Below are positions 405 to 22,397 of a DNA stretch of 38,166 bases, one piece after another. The stretch covers positions 1 through 38,166 of the IMG/VR virus record IMGVR_UViG_3300036850_000036. One strand, 5' to 3'. The translations under genes were made by a program, and so were the position numbers. Under the pieces are notes generated by a model. It was not told the DNA's origin. It made no database searches and saw nothing but the letters and a program-made list of their open reading frames with translations. This DNA comes from a virus. Within the stretch, counting starts at the first letter, position 1, and each line of letters begins with the position of its first letter.

Positions 405-479
405 CAGTGTTCTCCCTGCTCAACGGCTTCCCAATCACTCCGCAAGCCTGTGACCTGCGGGGGGGACTTGGAAAATGCC

Positions 480-889
480 AAGTCTACCCAGCTCTACCCC
501 CTCTGACCTGGTAAAACAAGTGATAGGTAGACTTGGTAGACTTAAAAGCGTAGGTACGCCACCTATATAAGCGCAACAGTAATATATTACTGTTTTTCTC
601 ACCTGCAAGTACCTCTAATCTAAGTCTACCCAAGTCTACCTCTCTTAAGTGTTTTTACTGGTAAGAGAGTCGGCAAGCCTTTTCCACTCAGGTAGACTTG
701 CCGTGGTCAAAGCCCCGTCCAAGTCTACCCACAAGCTTCCCCACACCCTTCCAAGTCTACCTAGGCAACCCTAATAAATGCGGAGAGTACACACTCACTA
801 ACTTTCTGGGTTATGCACATATCGATATGCATGAGCCTCGAAGGCCTCTGGGTAGACTTGAGGCTTCCAAGTCCCCCCTCAAGTCTACC
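480..889. repeat. Array of ten AAGTCTACC repeats in mixed orientation
   Basis: Forward copies of AAGTCTACC start at 480, 622, 632, 721, 753 and 881. Reverse copies (GGTAGACTT) start at 526, 535, 691 and 851. Two pairs are head-to-tail neighbours (526/535 and 622/632). Several copies are about 30 bases apart (691/721, 721/753, 851/881), close to three helical turns. Degenerate versions occur near 491 and 869. The pattern fits iterons of a replication origin or an operator array for a phage regulator. Its position beside the helicase gene of a prim-pol replicon favours the first. Confidence 0.85.
575..594. repeat. 20-bp perfect AT-rich palindrome
   Basis: AACAGTAATA is followed directly by its reverse complement TATTACTGTT and then by a T run (595-597). 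It sits in the most AT-rich part of the repeat region. It could be a dimeric protein-binding site, a DNA-unwinding element, or a weak terminator on the plus strand. Confidence 0.75.
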
Positions 890-16119: not shown

Positions 16120-16671
16120 ATGTGGATTGCGACAAACCGCCAGAAAAAGAACGCTTTCGCGAAGCGAGCGGACATGAAGCGGAAGGCGGAAGAACCGCCA
16201 GCCAAGCCTGCGCCGGTCGCGACACCGACTCCGGTTGCTGGTCCGAAACCTGATCTTGAGGCGATGAAGGCTGCGGCTGCGGAAGCGGCTGCGCTGGTTC
16301 ACGCGAACACTCCGGCCGATGATCTCACTGAACGGCTTCAAGGTGCGGGGACTCTCGAGGTTCCCGATTCGCTGATGGTTGACGGAATCGAAGAGCACAC
16401 CGAAGCGCTTGACGCGATCGTTTCCGAAGCGGTTGCGGAACCTGAACAGGTCAGACGCGGCCGTCCGATGTCTGCCGCTGTTGCGAAGCGAAACGCCTCG
16501 ATTCTCCAACTGCTCGCTGAGAATCCCGAAGGCCTGTCACGAGCCCAGCTTGCCGAAGAGGTCAAGGAGAAAGAGGCGAACGTGTACACCTCGCTGCGTC
16601 GCCTCCAGAGTGACGGCAAGGTTCGCGTGGAGAACACCGAAGGCACCAAGTATCTGTGGTACCTGGCCTGA
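16120..16671 (+). CDS. Winged-helix DNA-binding protein
   Basis: 183 residues. A basic start (RQKKNAFAKRADMKRK), a long Ala/Pro linker, then a C-terminal winged helix of about 65 residues: ILQLLAENPEGLSRAQLAEE, KEANVYTSLRRLQSDG (recognition helix) and the wing KVRVENTEGTKYLWYL. The domain resembles MarR/LexA-type small winged helices. It is probably a phage transcription or replication regulator. TTTGGAGG lies 6 bases before the ATG. It follows a terminator and precedes a strong promoter, so it is a separate unit. Confidence 0.78.
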   Translation: MWIATNRQKKNAFAKRADMKRKAEEPPAKPAPVATPTPVAGPKPDLEAMKAAAAEAAALVHANTPADDLTERLQGAGTLEVPDSLMVDGIEEHTEALDAIVSEAVAEPEQVRRGRPMSAAVAKRNASILQLLAENPEGLSRAQLAEEVKEKEANVYTSLRRLQSDGKVRVENTEGTKYLWYLA

Positions 16672-16702
16672 TCTGCGAAAACATTCAGGGGGTACCCCGG
16701 TG

Positions 16703-16731
16703 TTGACAGCATCGGGGGCACCTGATATTGT
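16703..16731 (+). promoter_or_regulatory. Strong sigma-70-type promoter
   Basis: TTGACA (16703-16708), 17-base spacer, TATTGT (16726-16731) with a TGA extension. It is the best promoter in the window and lies 44 bases before the ATG at 16775. CTGCGAAAAC at 16673-16682 upstream matches the arm of the inverted repeat at 19781-19856. Confidence 0.8.
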
Positions 16732-17723: not shown

Positions 17724-17796
17724 GTACCCATGGCCCAACTGGTAGGGCAACGGTCTCCAAAACCGGAGGTTCCAGGTTCGAATCCTGGTGGGTATG
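17724..17796 (+). tRNA. tRNA-Trp (anticodon CCA)
   Basis: 73 bases. Acceptor GTACCCA/TGGGTAT with one G-T pair at its end, D stem GCCC/GGGC with loop AACTGGTA, anticodon loop CTCCAAA, T stem CCAGG/CCTGG with loop TTCGAAT, discriminator G. The anticodon stem has one A-G mismatch at its base (27-43). CCA is not encoded. Confidence 0.93.
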
Positions 17797-17799
17797 CAA

Positions 17800-18125
17800 A
17801 GGGGGTCGCCCATCCTCTTCAAGGCTTAACCAGCCAACAGGGCAACGTTCACGGGAAGTCATGAGCCGGTGAACTGGTAAAACCCGGGTGGTTCCGGGCG
17901 CGTGTAACACGTAGGTGAGAGAACGTTAGTAGTGGACCAAGGTAGCCTCACAGGCAGACCGGGGGACGAACGCCAGTATCAGGCCGGGTGCAACTCCCGG
18001 GCACGCACGGTGTGTTTAGTCCGTACACCATTAGGTACCACGCGCATACTGCCTTGCGCAACGGACTCGGGTTCGGTTGGGTAGCTCCCGACGCGAGTAC
18101 AAAGGCTGCGGATGGCACCGTGGTC
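17800..18125 (+). other. Non-coding, hairpin-rich stretch within the tRNA block
   Basis: No credible gene. It contains a run of stems: GTTCAC..GTGAAC (17848-17874 area), CCCGG/CCGGG (17883-17898), CGTG/CACG (17901-17910), GCCT/AGGC (17945-17955), CCGGG/CCCGG (17984-18000), GGTGT/ACACC and GCGCA/TGCGC (to 18059). A tRNA-like frame can be drawn from 17899 (6 of 7 acceptor pairs with 18001-18007, a D-like arm ACGT/ACGT) to the T-like arm at 17984, but the middle is far too long and the T loop reads TGCAACT. Confidence 0.5.
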
Positions 18126-18197
18126 GCACTTCTAGCTCAGTTGGTAGAGCAACCGTGTAACAGCGGAAGGTGCGGGGTTCGAATCCCTGGGAGTGCA
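18126..18197 (+). tRNA. tRNA-like gene with abnormal anticodon arm
   Basis: 72 bases. Acceptor GCACTTC/GGAGTGC (one wobble), D stem GCTC/GAGC with AGTTGGTA, T stem CGGGG/CCCTG with TTCGAAT, discriminator A are all good. Between A26 and the T arm there are only 21 bases. The best anticodon stem is CCGT/GCGG with a 6-base loop GTAACA, or CCG/CGG with an 8-base loop. Reading T33 before AAC would give a valine-type anticodon, but the geometry is not canonical. Confidence 0.7.
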
Positions 18198-18200
18198 CGA

Positions 18201-18259
18201 GTCTGCTAGGCACATGAGGACCATGCTTATGGAGGGCATATCATCAGCGCTTAGCAGAC
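18201..18259 (+). other. 59-nt hairpin element between tRNA-like genes
   Basis: GTCTGCTA (18201-18208) pairs perfectly with TAGCAGAC (18252-18259). Inside, ATGC/GCAT near 18223-18239 can form a second stem. Possible spacer RNA or processing signal between the two tRNA-like genes. Confidence 0.5.
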
Positions 18260-18263
18260 ACAA

Positions 18264-18343
18264 GGGACCCTAGCTCAACTGGAAGAGCAGCGGACGCGCC
18301 TAGGTGCAAACCGTATGTGAAGGTTCGAGTCCTTCGGGTTCCC
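18264..18343 (+). tRNA. tRNA-like gene with enlarged anticodon arm
   Basis: 80 bases. Acceptor GGGACCC/GGGTTCC, D stem GCTC/GAGC with AACTGGAA, T stem GAAGG/CCTTC with TTCGAGT, discriminator C are good. The 29 bases between A26 and the T arm do not form a normal 5-bp, 7-base anticodon arm. The best stem GCGG/CCGT encloses 17 bases that hold a small hairpin GCGC-CTAG-GTGC. A class II reading with a long variable arm also fails to pair. No anticodon can be assigned. Confidence 0.65.
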
Positions 18344-18409
18344 CGAGAGTCATGGTTTATACTCTTTCAAAACTTCAACCCGACCGTCCTGCGAAAGCCC
18401 CGGTCGTAT

Positions 18410-18444: not shown

Positions 18445-18455
18445 CGTGCTATGGT
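18426..18455 (+). promoter_or_regulatory. Promoter for the DUF2637-like gene
   Basis: TTGAGG (18426-18431), 18-base spacer, TATGGT (18450-18455) with a TGC extension. The -35 overlaps the terminator stem. The transcript would start near 18462, before the ATG at 18484. Confidence 0.6.
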
Positions 18456-18483
18456 GGGAGTCCCCCAAGATGAAGGACTCATG

Positions 18484-19707
18484 ATGAACGATTTCACGTC
18501 AACACCGTCAGGCGCGCTCATGAGCGCGTGCGCACTCGGTGCGCTCATGCTCGCGCTCATCATCTGGCGCACGTCGCAGGGTGCGCGCGCACGCGCATCG
18601 GAACGCGCACGCGCATGGGCTGAACTCAAGCGCCCCGATTGGGAGGCGCGCGCGAAGCGCAAGGCAGACGCGCGCGCATCAGGTGCGCGCGCGGACGCGC
18701 GCTTGCGCATCACGCTCATGAGCGCGGTTGCGCTCGTTGCGCTCGCAGCCACGAACCTGAGCGCGCACGCCACGATTACCGCAATCCAGCGCATCGGCCT
18801 CACCTCGATCGACGCCGCGATCTCCGCTGTGATCGTCTTCGAAGCGTGGCTTGCGATCCTCGGTGCGCTTTCCCTGCGCCATATGACCAGGGGCGAAGGC
18901 TTCAACCGGTACGAAGCCGGTGTGTGGTCCATGGCTTCCCTGATGGGGGTTATCGCATGGTGGGGTGGGGATAGCCCCATCTTCGCGCTGTGGCCGCTGC
19001 TGGCTGCGGTTGCTTGGCACGTGGTCATCACCTTCGGACGTCCTCACAAGCCTTCGGCTCTGGTCGTCTGGTGGCGTATGAAGCGCGGTAAGGCTACCTC
19101 GCAAGACGCGAGTGCAGTGCTCACCGAACGACTTATCACGCTCATTGTCAACTGCGCGTACGCTGCCAACGTCGGACCCAAGCTCACGCGCGGTTTCTAC
19201 GCACGCGCGTACGATCGCGCATGGGCGCGCGCGGATGCGCTCGGCATCCTCACTCCCGAGGTGCGCGCGCGCATTCAGACGCGCATCGCCGCGCGCTATG
19301 TCGGCGCGCGCGCACTCGCTCCCGAAGCGGTTGCGCACATGAACCCTTGGAACGAGCGCGCACCGATGAGCGCGCGCACTCACGCGCGCACTGTGCGCCC
19401 GGTGAGCGCGCCTCCTGCGCGCGCACTCGAAGCGATCGCGCATGTTCCCGACGACGCGCGCGCACTCACCGAGGAGGCGCACGTGCCTGCTCCTGCCGTG
19501 AGCGCGCACGATAGCGAAGCTGTAATCGCTGCTATCGCCGCGCAGCCTGAAAAGGTGGTTCCGGTGAAGGTCAAGGATTGGATGCAGAAATTCGTGGAGC
19601 TGAACAACGAGCTGCCGAACCGCAACGAGTTGGCTGCGGCTATGCAGAAATCCCCCGGACACGCTGGCAAGTGGCTCACCCCGGTGCGCAAGGCGCTCGG
19701 GTATTAG
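18484..19707 (+). CDS. DUF2637/SpdB-like multi-span membrane protein with C-terminal helical domain
   Basis: 407 residues from the ATG at 18484 (AAGGA 6 bases upstream; an adjacent ATG is at 18481). About five membrane helices: near residues 11-28, 77-98, 108-131, 146-160 and 167-184. A soluble Arg/Ala-rich segment (GARARASERARAWAELKR) lies between the first two. The C-terminal ~45 residues (DWMQKFVELNNELPNRNELA, KWLTPVRKALGY) look like a small helix-turn-helix. This layout is typical of the DUF2637/SpdB-type proteins of actinobacterial conjugative plasmids, which help DNA spread through mycelium beside a TraB translocase. An FtsK-like gene lies downstream. The DNA is packed with GCGC. Confidence 0.7.
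   Translation: MNDFTSTPSGALMSACALGALMLALIIWRTSQGARARASERARAWAELKRPDWEARAKRKADARASGARADARLRITLMSAVALVALAATNLSAHATITAIQRIGLTSIDAAISAVIVFEAWLAILGALSLRHMTRGEGFNRYEAGVWSMASLMGVIAWWGGDSPIFALWPLLAAVAWHVVITFGRPHKPSALVVWWRMKRGKATSQDASAVLTERLITLIVNCAYAANVGPKLTRGFYARAYDRAWARADALGILTPEVRARIQTRIAARYVGARALAPEAVAHMNPWNERAPMSARTHARTVRPVSAPPARALEAIAHVPDDARALTEEAHVPAPAVSAHDSEAVIAAIAAQPEKVVPVKVKDWMQKFVELNNELPNRNELAAAMQKSPGHAGKWLTPVRKALGY
18510..19510 (+). repeat. GCGC-dense tracts inside the DUF2637-like gene
   Basis: GCGC and longer GCGCGC runs recur about every ten bases in 18510-18770 and 19200-19510 but are rare in the middle (about 18790-19130). Recurrent forms are TGCGCGCG, GAGCGCGCAC and ACGCGCGCA. The 17-mer formed by GCGCGCACTCACGCGCG (19375 area) recurs at the start of the FtsK-like gene (20604 area). 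Confidence 0.8.
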
Positions 19708-19716
19708 TTGAACAGC

Positions 19717-19749
19717 ACCCGGCACACCTGTGGAACAGGTGTGCCGGGT
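19717..19749 (+). terminator. 15-bp perfect hairpin after the DUF2637-like gene
   Basis: ACCCGGCACACCTGT (19717-19731) pairs fully with 19735-19749 around a GGA loop. No T run. It is either the terminator of the upstream gene or part of the repeat complex downstream, which shares the GGCACAC element. Confidence 0.78.
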
Positions 19750-19780
19750 CGGCACACACCGGCACACCGCAATAACGGCT

Positions 19781-19856
19781 TGACCTGCGAAAACGTTGCT
19801 TGGCACACTGGCACAGTGTGCCGAGAGCACCGCTCTCTGAACGTTTTCGCAGGTCA
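19781..19856. repeat. 76-nt inverted repeat folding as a three-way junction
   Basis: Outer arms TGACCTGCGAAAACGTT (19781-19797) and AACGTTTTCGCAGGTCA (19840-19856) pair over 17 bp without a mismatch. Inside are two more perfect hairpins: GGCACACTG-GCA-CAGTGTGCC (19802-19822) and GAGAGC-ACC-GCTCTC (19823-19837). Flanking DNA repeats CGGCACA several times (19720, 19751, 19760, 19867). Candidate transfer origin, partition site, recombination site or operator complex. Confidence 0.85.
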
Positions 19857-19903
19857 CCCCGACCACCGGCACAACCCGCCTACTGTGCCGTGCCGGGTCG
19901 GTG

Positions 19904-19920
19904 TATAATTAATTCAGACC
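19904..19920 (+). promoter_or_regulatory. TATAAT -10 and AATTCAGACC leader before the small membrane genes
   Basis: Perfect TATAAT at 19904-19909, then AATTCAGACC at 19911-19920. TATAATTCAGACC occurs at 14707-14719; here the same sequence is extended by four bases. No clear -35 box. Confidence 0.58.
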
Positions 19921-19947: not shown

Positions 19948-20415
19948 ATGAATGGTGATGAAATCAGCAATACGATCAATAATGGGACCGTCGAGTGGTC
20001 AGGAGCGGGTATTACTGCCCTCGTCCTGTTCATCGCCGCGTGGGTCCTGAACAAGTGGGGTCGTGAGCAGGAATGGACACCCGTGGTAGTTATGGTGCTG
20101 TCCGTGCTGGGATCGTTCGTTTTCCACGCTTCCCAGTGGTCCGCCAGCATCGGCGCGGGTATGGCGTCGTGGATGTCTGACAACAATTGGCCTGCCACGC
20201 TCGTTATGGGCATCGCCTTCGGTGTCTCCATGTTCGTCATCATCGCAGACCTCAAAGCGGACCCCCGCGTGAACGGATGGGCAGTGACCATGCTATTCGT
20301 CGCGCCGATCACGGCGCACGGTACGTCCGGTTGGATCGGTGCCATTGTGAATTTCGGTTACGAGTCGTTGACCGCGCTCGCGCTCGGGCTCGTCACGAAC
20401 GCGTTTGGGCACTGA
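19948..20415 (+). CDS. Four-span membrane protein of the transfer-like module
   Basis: 155 residues, with four hydrophobic helices: about residues 21-36, 45-63, 82-99 and 112-150 (the last possibly two). The N-terminus (MNGDEISNTINNGTVEWSG) is outside the membrane region. GAAAGGACAAAG precedes the ATG. It lies between the structured DNA and the FtsK-like gene; in actinobacterial plasmid-transfer loci small membrane proteins (Spd type) occupy such places. A membrane-pore or spread function is possible. No family recognised from sequence alone. Confidence 0.72.
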   Translation: MNGDEISNTINNGTVEWSGAGITALVLFIAAWVLNKWGREQEWTPVVVMVLSVLGSFVFHASQWSASIGAGMASWMSDNNWPATLVMGIAFGVSMFVIIADLKADPRVNGWAVTMLFVAPITAHGTSGWIGAIVNFGYESLTALALGLVTNAFGH

Positions 20416-20416
20416 C

Positions 20417-20587
20417 ATGGAAACGGTTCTGTGGTTCATCGGAGCGGCTATCGTCGTCGGCGTGATGTCACACGCCATTGACCTGTTGCCCATCCGCGTG
20501 GTTCAGTTTCTGCTGGTTATCAGCGCATGTTTCCTTATCTGGGTGACTGGCGCGTGGGAATGGATTCTTCGTGTCTTCTCTTACTGA
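20417..20587 (+). CDS. Small two-span membrane protein (56 aa)
   Basis: METVLWFIGAAIVVGVMSH is the first membrane helix and VVQFLLVISACFLIWVTGAW the second. The ATG is one base past the upstream stop. Its end overlaps the start of the FtsK-like gene by 17 bases. Likely partner of the adjacent membrane and translocase proteins, on context only. Confidence 0.7.
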   Translation: METVLWFIGAAIVVGVMSHAIDLLPIRVVQFLLVISACFLIWVTGAWEWILRVFSY

Positions 20588-22397
20588 CGATCAGAACGAA
20601 CCGCGCGCACTCACGCGCGTTGCGCGCACCTCGTGGGGTTACACCCTGCGGGGTGCGCGCGTACTTGCAGACGATGCGCGCGCGTGGACGCGCGCGGAAG
20701 GCATCGAGGTGCACATCCGCGAGCAGGATGCGCGCGCGCTCAGCGCGCAGCAACAACGAGCGATGCGCGCGCAATCGAACCGACGCGGGAAGCGCACGCA
20801 GAGCACGCATCCTACACGCGCACGCGCGATCACCGACATTGAAGTGAATGCGCGCGCATTCGGAATGCGCGCATTCCGGTGCGCGTGCGCGATCGCAGTT
20901 CCGATCGCTGCGTGCGTGCTCCCCCCATGGGCGCTCGTCGAAGGCAACCCTGAGGCGATGCTCATCTGGCCTGCCGCGTACGGGTACCTCGCGTGGCTTG
21001 GTTGGACGCATCGTGAAGACGAGCCGGTTCCTTCGGTAACCACGTTGCCTCCAGTTGAGAAAAAGACGCGGCTGTTCTCACGGAACCGACCGGAAGCGGG
21101 CCTCAAGCCAACAGCACAGGAATCGGCGATCATCGACCGAATTCACACCTGGGAGGCCAACGCCGCCGATCGCAAGCTTCATGAGGTGTTCCCCGGCTCG
21201 CCGATCATCGATGAGTCCGGCATCTTGATTCCTATGGAGTTCGCAGGGTTGTGGACGCCTGCGAAGCTGGATAACCAGGTCGACCAACTGAGAGCACTGC
21301 TCTCGGTTCCCGATGAGGTCAAGACGCAAGTGAGGCCGGGTGGCACCGCTGATCGTGCTGTCCTGCGTATCCGCACCCGCGTGCGAGACCTTGACCTCAC
21401 CTGGTCACCGGAGCGCAAGGGGCTTGGTCTCAACGCCGATACGGGCGAAGTCGTCTACATCGACATTACTGATCGCATCCTTGTTGCGGGAATGTCCGGA
21501 GCGGGGAAGTCGGTAGCGCTTCGGGTGCTCATGGCTGCTGTACTCGATCTGCTCAACACGGCGCTGGTGATTCTTGACCTCAAGGTGGAAGGTGCCCTGT
21601 GGTCACACGTTGCGCGCGTCGAATCTGAGGCGGACGGTATCCAGTCGGTAGTTGATGATCTGGTTACCGAGATGCGCGAGCGTGAAACGATCATGCGCAC
21701 CGAAAGCCTTGACATGTGGGAACCCACCCCCGAGCGTCCTCGTATCGTCGTGGTCGTCGATGAAGGTGCGGAGCTCATGACCGAGGTCGAAGGCGCGGTT
21801 ACCGGTCTGCGCTCGCTCGCACGCCGTGCACGCTCGGCACAGATCATCTTGTGGTGGGCCACGCAGAAACCCACGGTGACCGGAGCTGGCAAAGGACTGG
21901 ACTCCGCTATTTCTGCTCAGCTCACCTCACAAGTGTGCATGGCTGTGTCCTCTCCTACTGAGGCGCGCAACGTCTTGGGAGAGGACGCCACCGCCAAGGG
22001 TTGGCATGCGGAAGATCTGCTCAAGGGCGGATGGTCGATGGTTCGCGTTCAGGGCGAAGACAGGACTCCGGACCCTACCCGCGTCTGGCACATGACCAAG
22101 GAAGACGTGAAGGCGATCGAACCGCGTTCACCATGGCGTCGCGCTAAGACGCTTTCGCCGGTCGCTGCAAAGGATGCGCTCGTTGTCGCACTCGAACTGT
22201 CCGAAGGGCTGCAAGGCGTGTCAACGGCGCGTCTTGCTATCGCACTCGGCGTTGCTGACACTGAGGTGCACGCACGCATGCGCATCCACGGTGTCGAGGT
22301 GGAACCGAACGCATTCGCGATGGGGAACGGCGAAAAGGCTCGGGGATACCGCAGGGATAAACTTGAGGCAGCGTTCAACGGGAGGAATGATCGATGA
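20571..22397 (+). CDS. FtsK/SpoIIIE/TraB-type DNA translocase
   Basis: 608 residues, GTG start within the end of the upstream gene. An Arg/Ala-rich N-terminus (about 1-100), two membrane segments (about 103-122 and 128-145), then an FtsK-type motor: Walker A VAGMSGAGKSVALR (residues 305-318), Walker B RIVVVVDEGAELM (391-403) and WWATQKPT (428-435). The C-terminal ~80 residues contain a winged-helix-like part (STARLAIALGVADTEVHARM). Membrane anchor, motor and C-terminal DNA-binding domain match TraB-type hexameric pumps of actinobacterial plasmids and FtsK. It probably moves double-stranded phage or plasmid DNA across or along a membrane. The first 300 bases are crowded with GCGC. Confidence 0.88.
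   Translation: MSSLTDDQNEPRALTRVARTSWGYTLRGARVLADDARAWTRAEGIEVHIREQDARALSAQQQRAMRAQSNRRGKRTQSTHPTRARAITDIEVNARAFGMRAFRCACAIAVPIAACVLPPWALVEGNPEAMLIWPAAYGYLAWLGWTHREDEPVPSVTTLPPVEKKTRLFSRNRPEAGLKPTAQESAIIDRIHTWEANAADRKLHEVFPGSPIIDESGILIPMEFAGLWTPAKLDNQVDQLRALLSVPDEVKTQVRPGGTADRAVLRIRTRVRDLDLTWSPERKGLGLNADTGEVVYIDITDRILVAGMSGAGKSVALRVLMAAVLDLLNTALVILDLKVEGALWSHVARVESEADGIQSVVDDLVTEMRERETIMRTESLDMWEPTPERPRIVVVVDEGAELMTEVEGAVTGLRSLARRARSAQIILWWATQKPTVTGAGKGLDSAISAQLTSQVCMAVSSPTEARNVLGEDATAKGWHAEDLLKGGWSMVRVQGEDRTPDPTRVWHMTKEDVKAIEPRSPWRRAKTLSPVAAKDALVVALELSEGLQGVSTARLAIALGVADTEVHARMRIHGVEVEPNAFAMGNGEKARGYRRDKLEAAFNGRNDR
20602..20893 (+). repeat. GCGC-dense tract at the 5' end of the FtsK-like gene
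   Basis: Very frequent GCGC and GCGCGC, often as GATGCGCGCG or AATGCGCGC. It includes two adjacent palindromes, GAATGCGCGCGCATTC (20846-20861) and CGGAATGCGCGCATTCCG (20861-20878). The density falls sharply after about 20900. Confidence 0.8.

What the first reader, a model, noticed from the sequence alone, without database searches (positions are those of the whole stretch)
19717..19920. Perfect three-way-junction inverted repeat next to a 15-bp hairpin
A 17-bp outer stem with two inner perfect hairpins is far beyond chance and lies in a gap flanked by the DUF2637 and pump genes. CGGCACA elements repeat around it. It is a strong candidate for the cis-acting transfer, partition or recombination site of this module.
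Basis: partly seen in the sequence, partly recalled or inferred. Interest (0 to 1): 0.8.

Follow-up and report, generated by a model that had tools for sequence, protein, structure and literature searches.

The report
Repeat-studded control site of phage pump
The folded-looking DNA is the shared control and protein-docking region in front of a conjugation-type DNA pump operon in a family of soil phages; its hairpins are mostly inverted copies of two protein-binding motifs, and whether the pump itself docks there, as its plasmid cousins do, can be tested directly.

Summary
The inverted repeats are real and beyond chance: outer arms 17/17, hairpin 15/15, best of 100 shuffled windows 14. The window is a fragment of a tailed phage with about 30 relatives among soil and rhizosphere viral contigs. 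The gap is conserved at the same place in all examined: membrane/HTH gene, site, variable membrane gene, FtsK-like pump. The "three-way junction" is not the functional unit. (1) Its outer arms are two inverted copies of TGACCTGCGGAAAC, a motif that also occurs singly before other promoters of these phages; the outer stem shows no covariation above shuffles and decays in distant relatives. (2) GGCACAC occurs 8-13 times per site at fixed distances from a conserved TATAAT, and nowhere else as densely. (3) Only the 15-bp hairpin after the upstream stop codon covaries clearly, so it is a true hairpin, probably a terminator. The pump is a relative of Streptomyces conjugation proteins (pIJ101 Tra 194 bits; E. 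coli FtsK 57 bits), which in their plasmids load on short repeats (clt). Best reading: promoter/operator of the pump operon whose GGCACAC array also serves as a clt-like docking site; the docking step is inferred. Origin and recombination readings find no support.

The parts
18451..19707 (+). upstream gene, 418 aa: membrane helices plus C-terminal HTH; DUF2637-like layout but no DUF2637 sequence match
19717..19749 (+). 15-bp perfect hairpin 9 nt after the stop codon of the upstream gene; terminator-like without a U tract; its arms are two GGCACACC elements
   Evidence: covariation 0.233 vs 0.088 +/- 0.014 shuffled
19721..19894 (.). array of ten GGCAC(A/G)C elements; motif starts 19721(+), 19745(-), 19751(+), 19761(+), 19802(+), 19810(+), 19822(-), 19868(+), 19889(-), 19894(-)
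19781..19797 (+). left outer arm: TGACCTGCGAAAAC copy of the phage promoter-upstream motif, plus GTT
19802..19822 (.). inner hairpin = inverted pair of GGCACAC elements
19823..19837 (.). small inner hairpin, not kept in distant relatives
19840..19856 (-). right outer arm: inverted copy of the same motif, 47 nt upstream of the -10 box (42-52 nt in solitary promoter copies)
19889..19909 (+). promoter core: -10 TATAAT at 19904-19909; overlapping inverted GGCAC pair (TGTGCCGTGCCGG) where a -35 box would lie; no -35 consensus
19948..20415 (+). 155-aa membrane protein, variable among relatives
20571..22397 (+). 608-aa FtsK_SpoIIIE pump of the actinomycete Tra/TraB type, with a C-terminal HTH-like domain
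16669..16731 (+). solitary TGATCTGCGAAAAC motif (16669-16682) followed by TTGACA (16703-16708), 17 nt, TATTGT (16726-16731): shows the arm motif also occurs outside any stem

Best explanation
The stretch 19717-19909 is the promoter/operator of the pump operon (155-aa membrane protein plus Tra/TraB-type DNA pump), preceded by a terminator-like hairpin of the upstream gene. Two kinds of double-stranded DNA motif make it up: about ten GGCACAC elements at conserved distances from the -10 box, and two inverted copies of TGACCTGCGGAAAC, a promoter-upstream motif used elsewhere in the same phages. Shown: conserved position, motifs, spacing, promoter box, and that the outer stem is conserved as sequence rather than as pairing. 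Inferred: the GGCACAC array is bound by the pump through its C-terminal wHTH-like domain, so that it serves, like clt in Streptomyces plasmids, as the place where the pump assembles on the phage DNA while also adjusting the pump's own expression; a phage regulator binds the TGACCTGCGGAAAC copies.
For: Same site between the same genes in 26 aligned relatives. GGCAC core with G, C, A, C invariant in 267 of 267 scored elements (the scan required that core up to G/A at position 2), spacing fixed to within a few bases; it is the densest GGCACA cluster in all nine genomes (3-14 elements against at most 3 per 250 bp elsewhere). Arm motif: six exact 14-mers outside the site in nine genomes, none expected by a Markov model; copies at two recurring positions stand 42-52 nt before a -10 box. 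Outer-stem covariation 0.128 vs 0.116 +/- 0.007 shuffled. Pump: 194 bits to pIJ101 Tra, 57 bits to E. coli FtsK; its closest plasmid hits are small Streptomyces plasmids, several with spd genes. The pump's C-terminal domain is 76% identical among 12 relatives while the upstream protein's HTH region is 46-53% identical, yet the DNA motif does not change, which favours the pump as binder. Known clt loci are short direct repeats (pJV1 CCGCACA[C/G][C/G], very like CGGCACACC; pWTY27 TGACACC) plus inverted repeats beside tra; in pWTY27 the Tra protein was shown to bind them (PMC3583192; TraB and TRS, PMC4170104). An independent phage group (Woodruffvirus YDN12) also has hairpin, repeat cluster (GGAACGG, six copies in 118 bp), promoter-like box and FtsK-like gene in this order.
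Against: No binding or transfer data. The elements point both ways, whereas clt repeats are described as direct repeats. Elements next to the -10 box suggest a transcriptional operator and need no docking role. The likeness to the pJV1 repeat is eight of nine letters and could be chance; pJV1 itself could not be fetched. The pump model has low confidence (pLDDT 53), so the wHTH rests on sequence and secondary structure. Some solitary arm-motif copies lie in coding sequence without a promoter.
Confidence: 0.42

Rival explanations
1. Purely transcriptional control region: GGCACAC is an operator array for a repressor or activator of the pump operon (not the pump itself), and the TGACCTGCGGAAAC copies bind a phage activator; no docking, transfer or partition role.
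For: Elements overlap the expected -35 position and there is no -35 consensus; the right arm sits as far from the -10 box as the solitary motif copies do at other promoters.
Against: Ten elements over 175 bp, reaching into the terminator hairpin of the upstream gene, are more than a simple operator needs; the repeat cluster recurs with an unrelated motif before the FtsK-like gene of another phage group.
Confidence: 0.38
2. Partition or anchoring site: the membrane/HTH protein (418 aa) binds GGCACAC and tethers the phage genome to the membrane.
For: The gene is always adjacent and has membrane helices and a confident C-terminal helical HTH-like domain.
Against: Its HTH region varies (46-53% identity) while the motif does not; no typical partition pair was seen, but ParA/ParB were not searched for.
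Confidence: 0.08
3. Replication origin of the phage (iterons plus hairpins).
For: Iterons and long inverted repeats occur at origins such as that of pWTY27 (PMC3583192).
Against: No initiator gene alongside; cumulative GC skew peaks 2.5-9.7 kb downstream of the site and has no minimum there (partly a gene-orientation effect); another repeat cluster, different in each phage, lies beside the primase/helicase genes (window 479-880).
Confidence: 0.05
4. A single-stranded DNA or RNA three-way junction (recombination, packaging or riboregulator structure) is the functional unit.
For: Very stable predicted fold on both strands.
Against: Outer stem without covariation above shuffles; left arm changed in L030, L031, L033 and L051 while the right arm stays; in L079 both arms stay while the inner hairpin is lost; no Rfam match; no integrase or resolvase.
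Confidence: 0.04

Closest known systems
clt loci of Streptomyces conjugative plasmids (pIJ101, pJV1, pWTY27, pSVH1; 8-bp TRS repeats bound by TraB)
   Same: short repeats plus inverted repeats in a noncoding stretch next to a Tra/TraB-type FtsK pump gene; repeat unit close to that of pJV1
   Different: lies in a tailed phage; elements in both orientations; fused to a promoter and to copies of a phage-wide motif; binding and transfer untested
FtsK-like gene region of Streptomyces phages (Woodruffvirus YDN12, TP1604, Xkcd426)
   Same: hairpin, repeat cluster, promoter-like box, FtsK-like gene in this order
   Different: unrelated repeat sequence (GGAACGG, one orientation), no inverted arm motif, different HTH domains
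Iteron origin of pWTY27 (RepA, long stem-loop)
   Same: iterons and long stem-loops
   Different: no replication gene adjacent; skew and gene context point elsewhere
Intrinsic terminators
   Same: GC-rich covarying hairpin just after a stop codon (19717-19749)
   Different: no U tract

Membership tests
clt / TRS docking site of Tra/TraB pumps | lies beside a gene for a Tra/TraB-type FtsK pump | tested here: met
   pump gene 20571-22397; 194 bits to pIJ101 Tra vs 57 bits to E. coli FtsK
clt / TRS docking site of Tra/TraB pumps | several 7-9 bp repeats plus inverted repeats in a noncoding stretch of about 50-200 bp | tested here: met
   ten GGCACAC elements in 175 bp, fixed spacing in relatives
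clt / TRS docking site of Tra/TraB pumps | pump carries a C-terminal winged HTH that reads the repeats | tested here: inconclusive
   conserved C-terminal HTH-like domain by sequence and predicted helices; structure of low confidence, binding untested
clt / TRS docking site of Tra/TraB pumps | pump binds the site, and the site is needed in cis for DNA transfer | not testable with these tools
   needs gel shift, footprint and a transfer assay
DUF2637 (PF10935), for the upstream protein | match to the family profile | tested here: not met
   no hit up to E = 10; no profile match to a plasmid DUF2637 protein
DNA/RNA three-way junction | outer stem kept by compensatory changes | tested here: not met
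   covariation 0.128 vs 0.116 shuffled; 39/500 shuffles reach the number of double changes
intrinsic terminator (hairpin 19717-19749) | covarying GC-rich hairpin directly after a stop codon | tested here: met
   covariation 0.233 vs 0.088, 0/500 shuffles
intrinsic terminator (hairpin 19717-19749) | U tract after the stem | tested here: not met
   sequence; not found by the terminator scan
site-specific recombination site | cognate tyrosine or serine recombinase in the element | tested here: not met
   no PF00589 or PF00239 match in nine genomes
replication origin | adjacent initiator gene and skew minimum | tested here: not met
   neighbours are membrane and pump genes; skew maximum, not minimum, lies nearby
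known RNA family | match to an Rfam model | tested here: not met
   none at E <= 1

The most novel reading that the evidence does not exclude
A family of tailed soil phages carries a complete conjugation-type transfer module (Tra/TraB-type pump plus clt-like GGCACAC docking array plus membrane partners) and can pass its genome as double-stranded DNA between neighbouring cells or hyphal compartments without making virions.
Probability: 0.12. Interest if true: 0.85.

Novelty: new variant of a known kind. Interest (0 to 1): 0.45.

Why it matters
FtsK-like genes are annotated in Streptomyces phages with no established role. A conserved, pump-linked repeat array gives a concrete DNA substrate with which to test whether phages use conjugation-type pumps, and it defines a phage promoter motif (TGACCTGCGGAAAC) for finding the regulator. 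It also shows that a striking single-sequence fold can be an inverted arrangement of protein-binding motifs, which comparison with relatives exposes.

Tried and rejected
Three-way junction as a structure: rejected by pair counts and by arms occurring singly. DUF2637 by HMM and by profile comparison: not found. Known RNA: none. Integrase or resolvase partner: none. Close relatives in named phages, plasmids and bacterial genomes: no useful DNA match, no relative of the upstream protein, so host and lysogenic state stay unknown. Literature search for the arm sequence: one unrelated paper. Structure predictions: upstream protein pLDDT 64, pump 53; fold search of the former gave no significant match, only a weak LexA-like HTH hit for a 43-residue stretch. 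GC skew as origin test: confounded by gene direction. pJV1 record not in the collection.

Full report
OBSERVATION. The inverted repeats are exactly as described: a 15-bp hairpin at 19717-19749, then 17-bp arms at 19781-19797 and 19840-19856 enclosing a 9-bp and a 6-bp hairpin. The 17-bp arms are the best, and the 15-bp hairpin one of the two second-best, perfect inverted repeats of the window with loop up to 60; 100 shuffles never exceed 14. CGGCACA/TGTGCCG is clustered there (7 of 11 copies in the window; best 7-mer cluster 7 vs at most 4 in shuffles).

SETTING. The window is an IMG/VR virus record, a fragment of a tailed phage: tape measure and tail genes on the minus strand, PolA, SNF2 helicase, nuclease, primase genes and tRNAs on the left. 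Searches with the flanking genes found about 30 related viral contigs, several of about 60 kb. Two of them (G001, G004) have 127-bp identical ends and so probably assemble as circles. The site lies between the same genes in all those examined: membrane/HTH protein (63-84% identical), site, 155-aa membrane protein (28-37%, or too divergent to detect; 78% in L079), FtsK-like pump (57-84%). No tyrosine or serine recombinase was found in nine genomes.

WHAT IS CONSERVED. Aligning 26 relatives shows three layers. First, GGCAC elements: 8-13 per site, at nearly constant distances from a conserved GTGTATAAT (typically -208, -196, -172, -161, -157, -145, -102, -94, -82, -15, -10). In every one of the nine genomes this is the densest GGCACA cluster. 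Second, the outer arms contain TGACCTGCGGAAAC in inverted orientation. The same 14-mer occurs six times exactly outside the site in the nine genomes (none expected) and more often with one or two mismatches. At two recurring positions it stands 42-52 nt before a -10 box of another gene, for example window 16669 followed by TTGACA-17-TATTGT. The right arm of our site lies 47 nt before TATAAT, which fits that series although in reverse orientation. Several other copies are coding and show no promoter, so the motif's role is inferred. Third, the 15-bp hairpin after the stop codon.

IS PAIRING CONSERVED? For the outer stem, covariation is 0.128 against 0.116 +/- 0.007 in shuffles and double changes do not stand out. 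In L030, L031, L033 and L051 the left arm has changed and the right has not; in L079 both arms stay and the inner hairpin is lost. For the 15-bp hairpin, covariation is 0.233 against 0.088 +/- 0.014, with 38 double-changed cells against 18.6 (relatedness inflates such counts). So the outer stem is two copies of a sequence motif, while the first hairpin is a real hairpin, probably the terminator of the upstream gene although it lacks a U tract.

THE PUMP. The 608-aa protein matches FtsK_SpoIIIE and is nearer to conjugation proteins of small Streptomyces plasmids than to the cell-division FtsK tested: 194 bits to pIJ101 Tra vs 57 to E. coli FtsK. Its best plasmid hit lies on a plasmid that also carries a DUF2637 gene just downstream. 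Its C-terminal domain is HTH-like and conserved (76% among 12 relatives), whereas the HTH region of the upstream protein is only 46-53% identical. Because the DNA motif is invariant, the pump is the more likely reader of the two; a third protein is not excluded. In Streptomyces plasmids Tra/TraB proteins assemble on clt loci made of short repeats: pJV1 CCGCACA[C/G][C/G], pWTY27 TGACACC, 8-bp TRS (PMC3583192; PMC4170104). The phage unit CGGCACACC differs from the pJV1 unit at one of nine positions, which may be chance.

AN INDEPENDENT PARALLEL. In Streptomyces phages YDN12, TP1604 and Xkcd426 the gap before the FtsK-like gene holds a hairpin, the repeat GGAACGG (in YDN12 six copies in 118 bp, the only such cluster of the genome) and a promoter-like box. 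Repeat and HTH domains are unrelated to ours, so a repeat array before such pumps occurs in at least two phage groups.

MECHANISM. Shown: conserved position, motif set, spacing, -10 box, behaviour of the stems. Inferred: transcription of the membrane-protein/pump operon starts near 19915, under a phage regulator at the TGACCTGCGGAAAC copies; GGCACAC is bound by the pump, which docks there and may repress its own promoter through the pair overlapping the -35 position. A purely transcriptional reading is nearly as likely (0.38 vs 0.42).

REJECTED READINGS. No support for a recombination site, a known RNA or an origin (no initiator beside it; skew maximum rather than minimum nearby; a phage-specific repeat cluster beside the primase/helicase genes is a better candidate).

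VERDICT. Ordinary in its parts, unusual as a whole: a clt-like repeat array fused to the promoter of a Tra-type pump in tailed phages. Interest 0.45.

Noticed in passing
window 479-880; G001 78-397; G003 54365-54815; G004 53062-53431: Each of these phage genomes has its own 10-bp repeat clustered about 7-14 times in a few hundred bases (window CAAGTCTACC, G001 ATCCCTGCAA, G003 CTACCCCTGC, G004 ATCCCGGACA), in both orientations, in the window next to primase/helicase genes: candidate origin iterons or phage-specific repressor sites.
   Followed up: partly
window 16669-16731 and homologous places in G001-G008: TGACCTGCGGAAAC recurs 42-52 nt upstream of -10 boxes at two recurring positions per genome, one overlapping the stop codon of an HTH-type gene in the window (16120-16671): a phage promoter-upstream motif for which no description was found.
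   Followed up: partly
window 19948-20415 and homologues: The 155-aa membrane protein is only 28-37% identical (or undetectable) among relatives whose flanking genes are 57-84% identical, yet 78% identical in L079 whose pump N-terminal part is 50%: looks like an allele that is swapped, as in exclusion or immunity genes.
   Followed up: no
L009, L013, L015, L016, L017, right after the stop codon of the upstream gene: An extra stretch of about 60-85 bp with a long near-perfect hairpin (e.g. GGAACATCTCAAGTCTC/GAGGCTTGAGATGTTCC), absent from the window: added terminator or small mobile hairpin.
   Followed up: no
window 17724-18344: tRNA-Trp, a tRNA-like gene with an odd two-base anticodon call, and tRNA-Arg lie just before the module.
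   Followed up: no
window 19180-19480 and other coding regions of the relatives: Strong enrichment of GCGCGC runs inside coding sequence, also among the top repeated 10-mers of several relatives.
   Followed up: no
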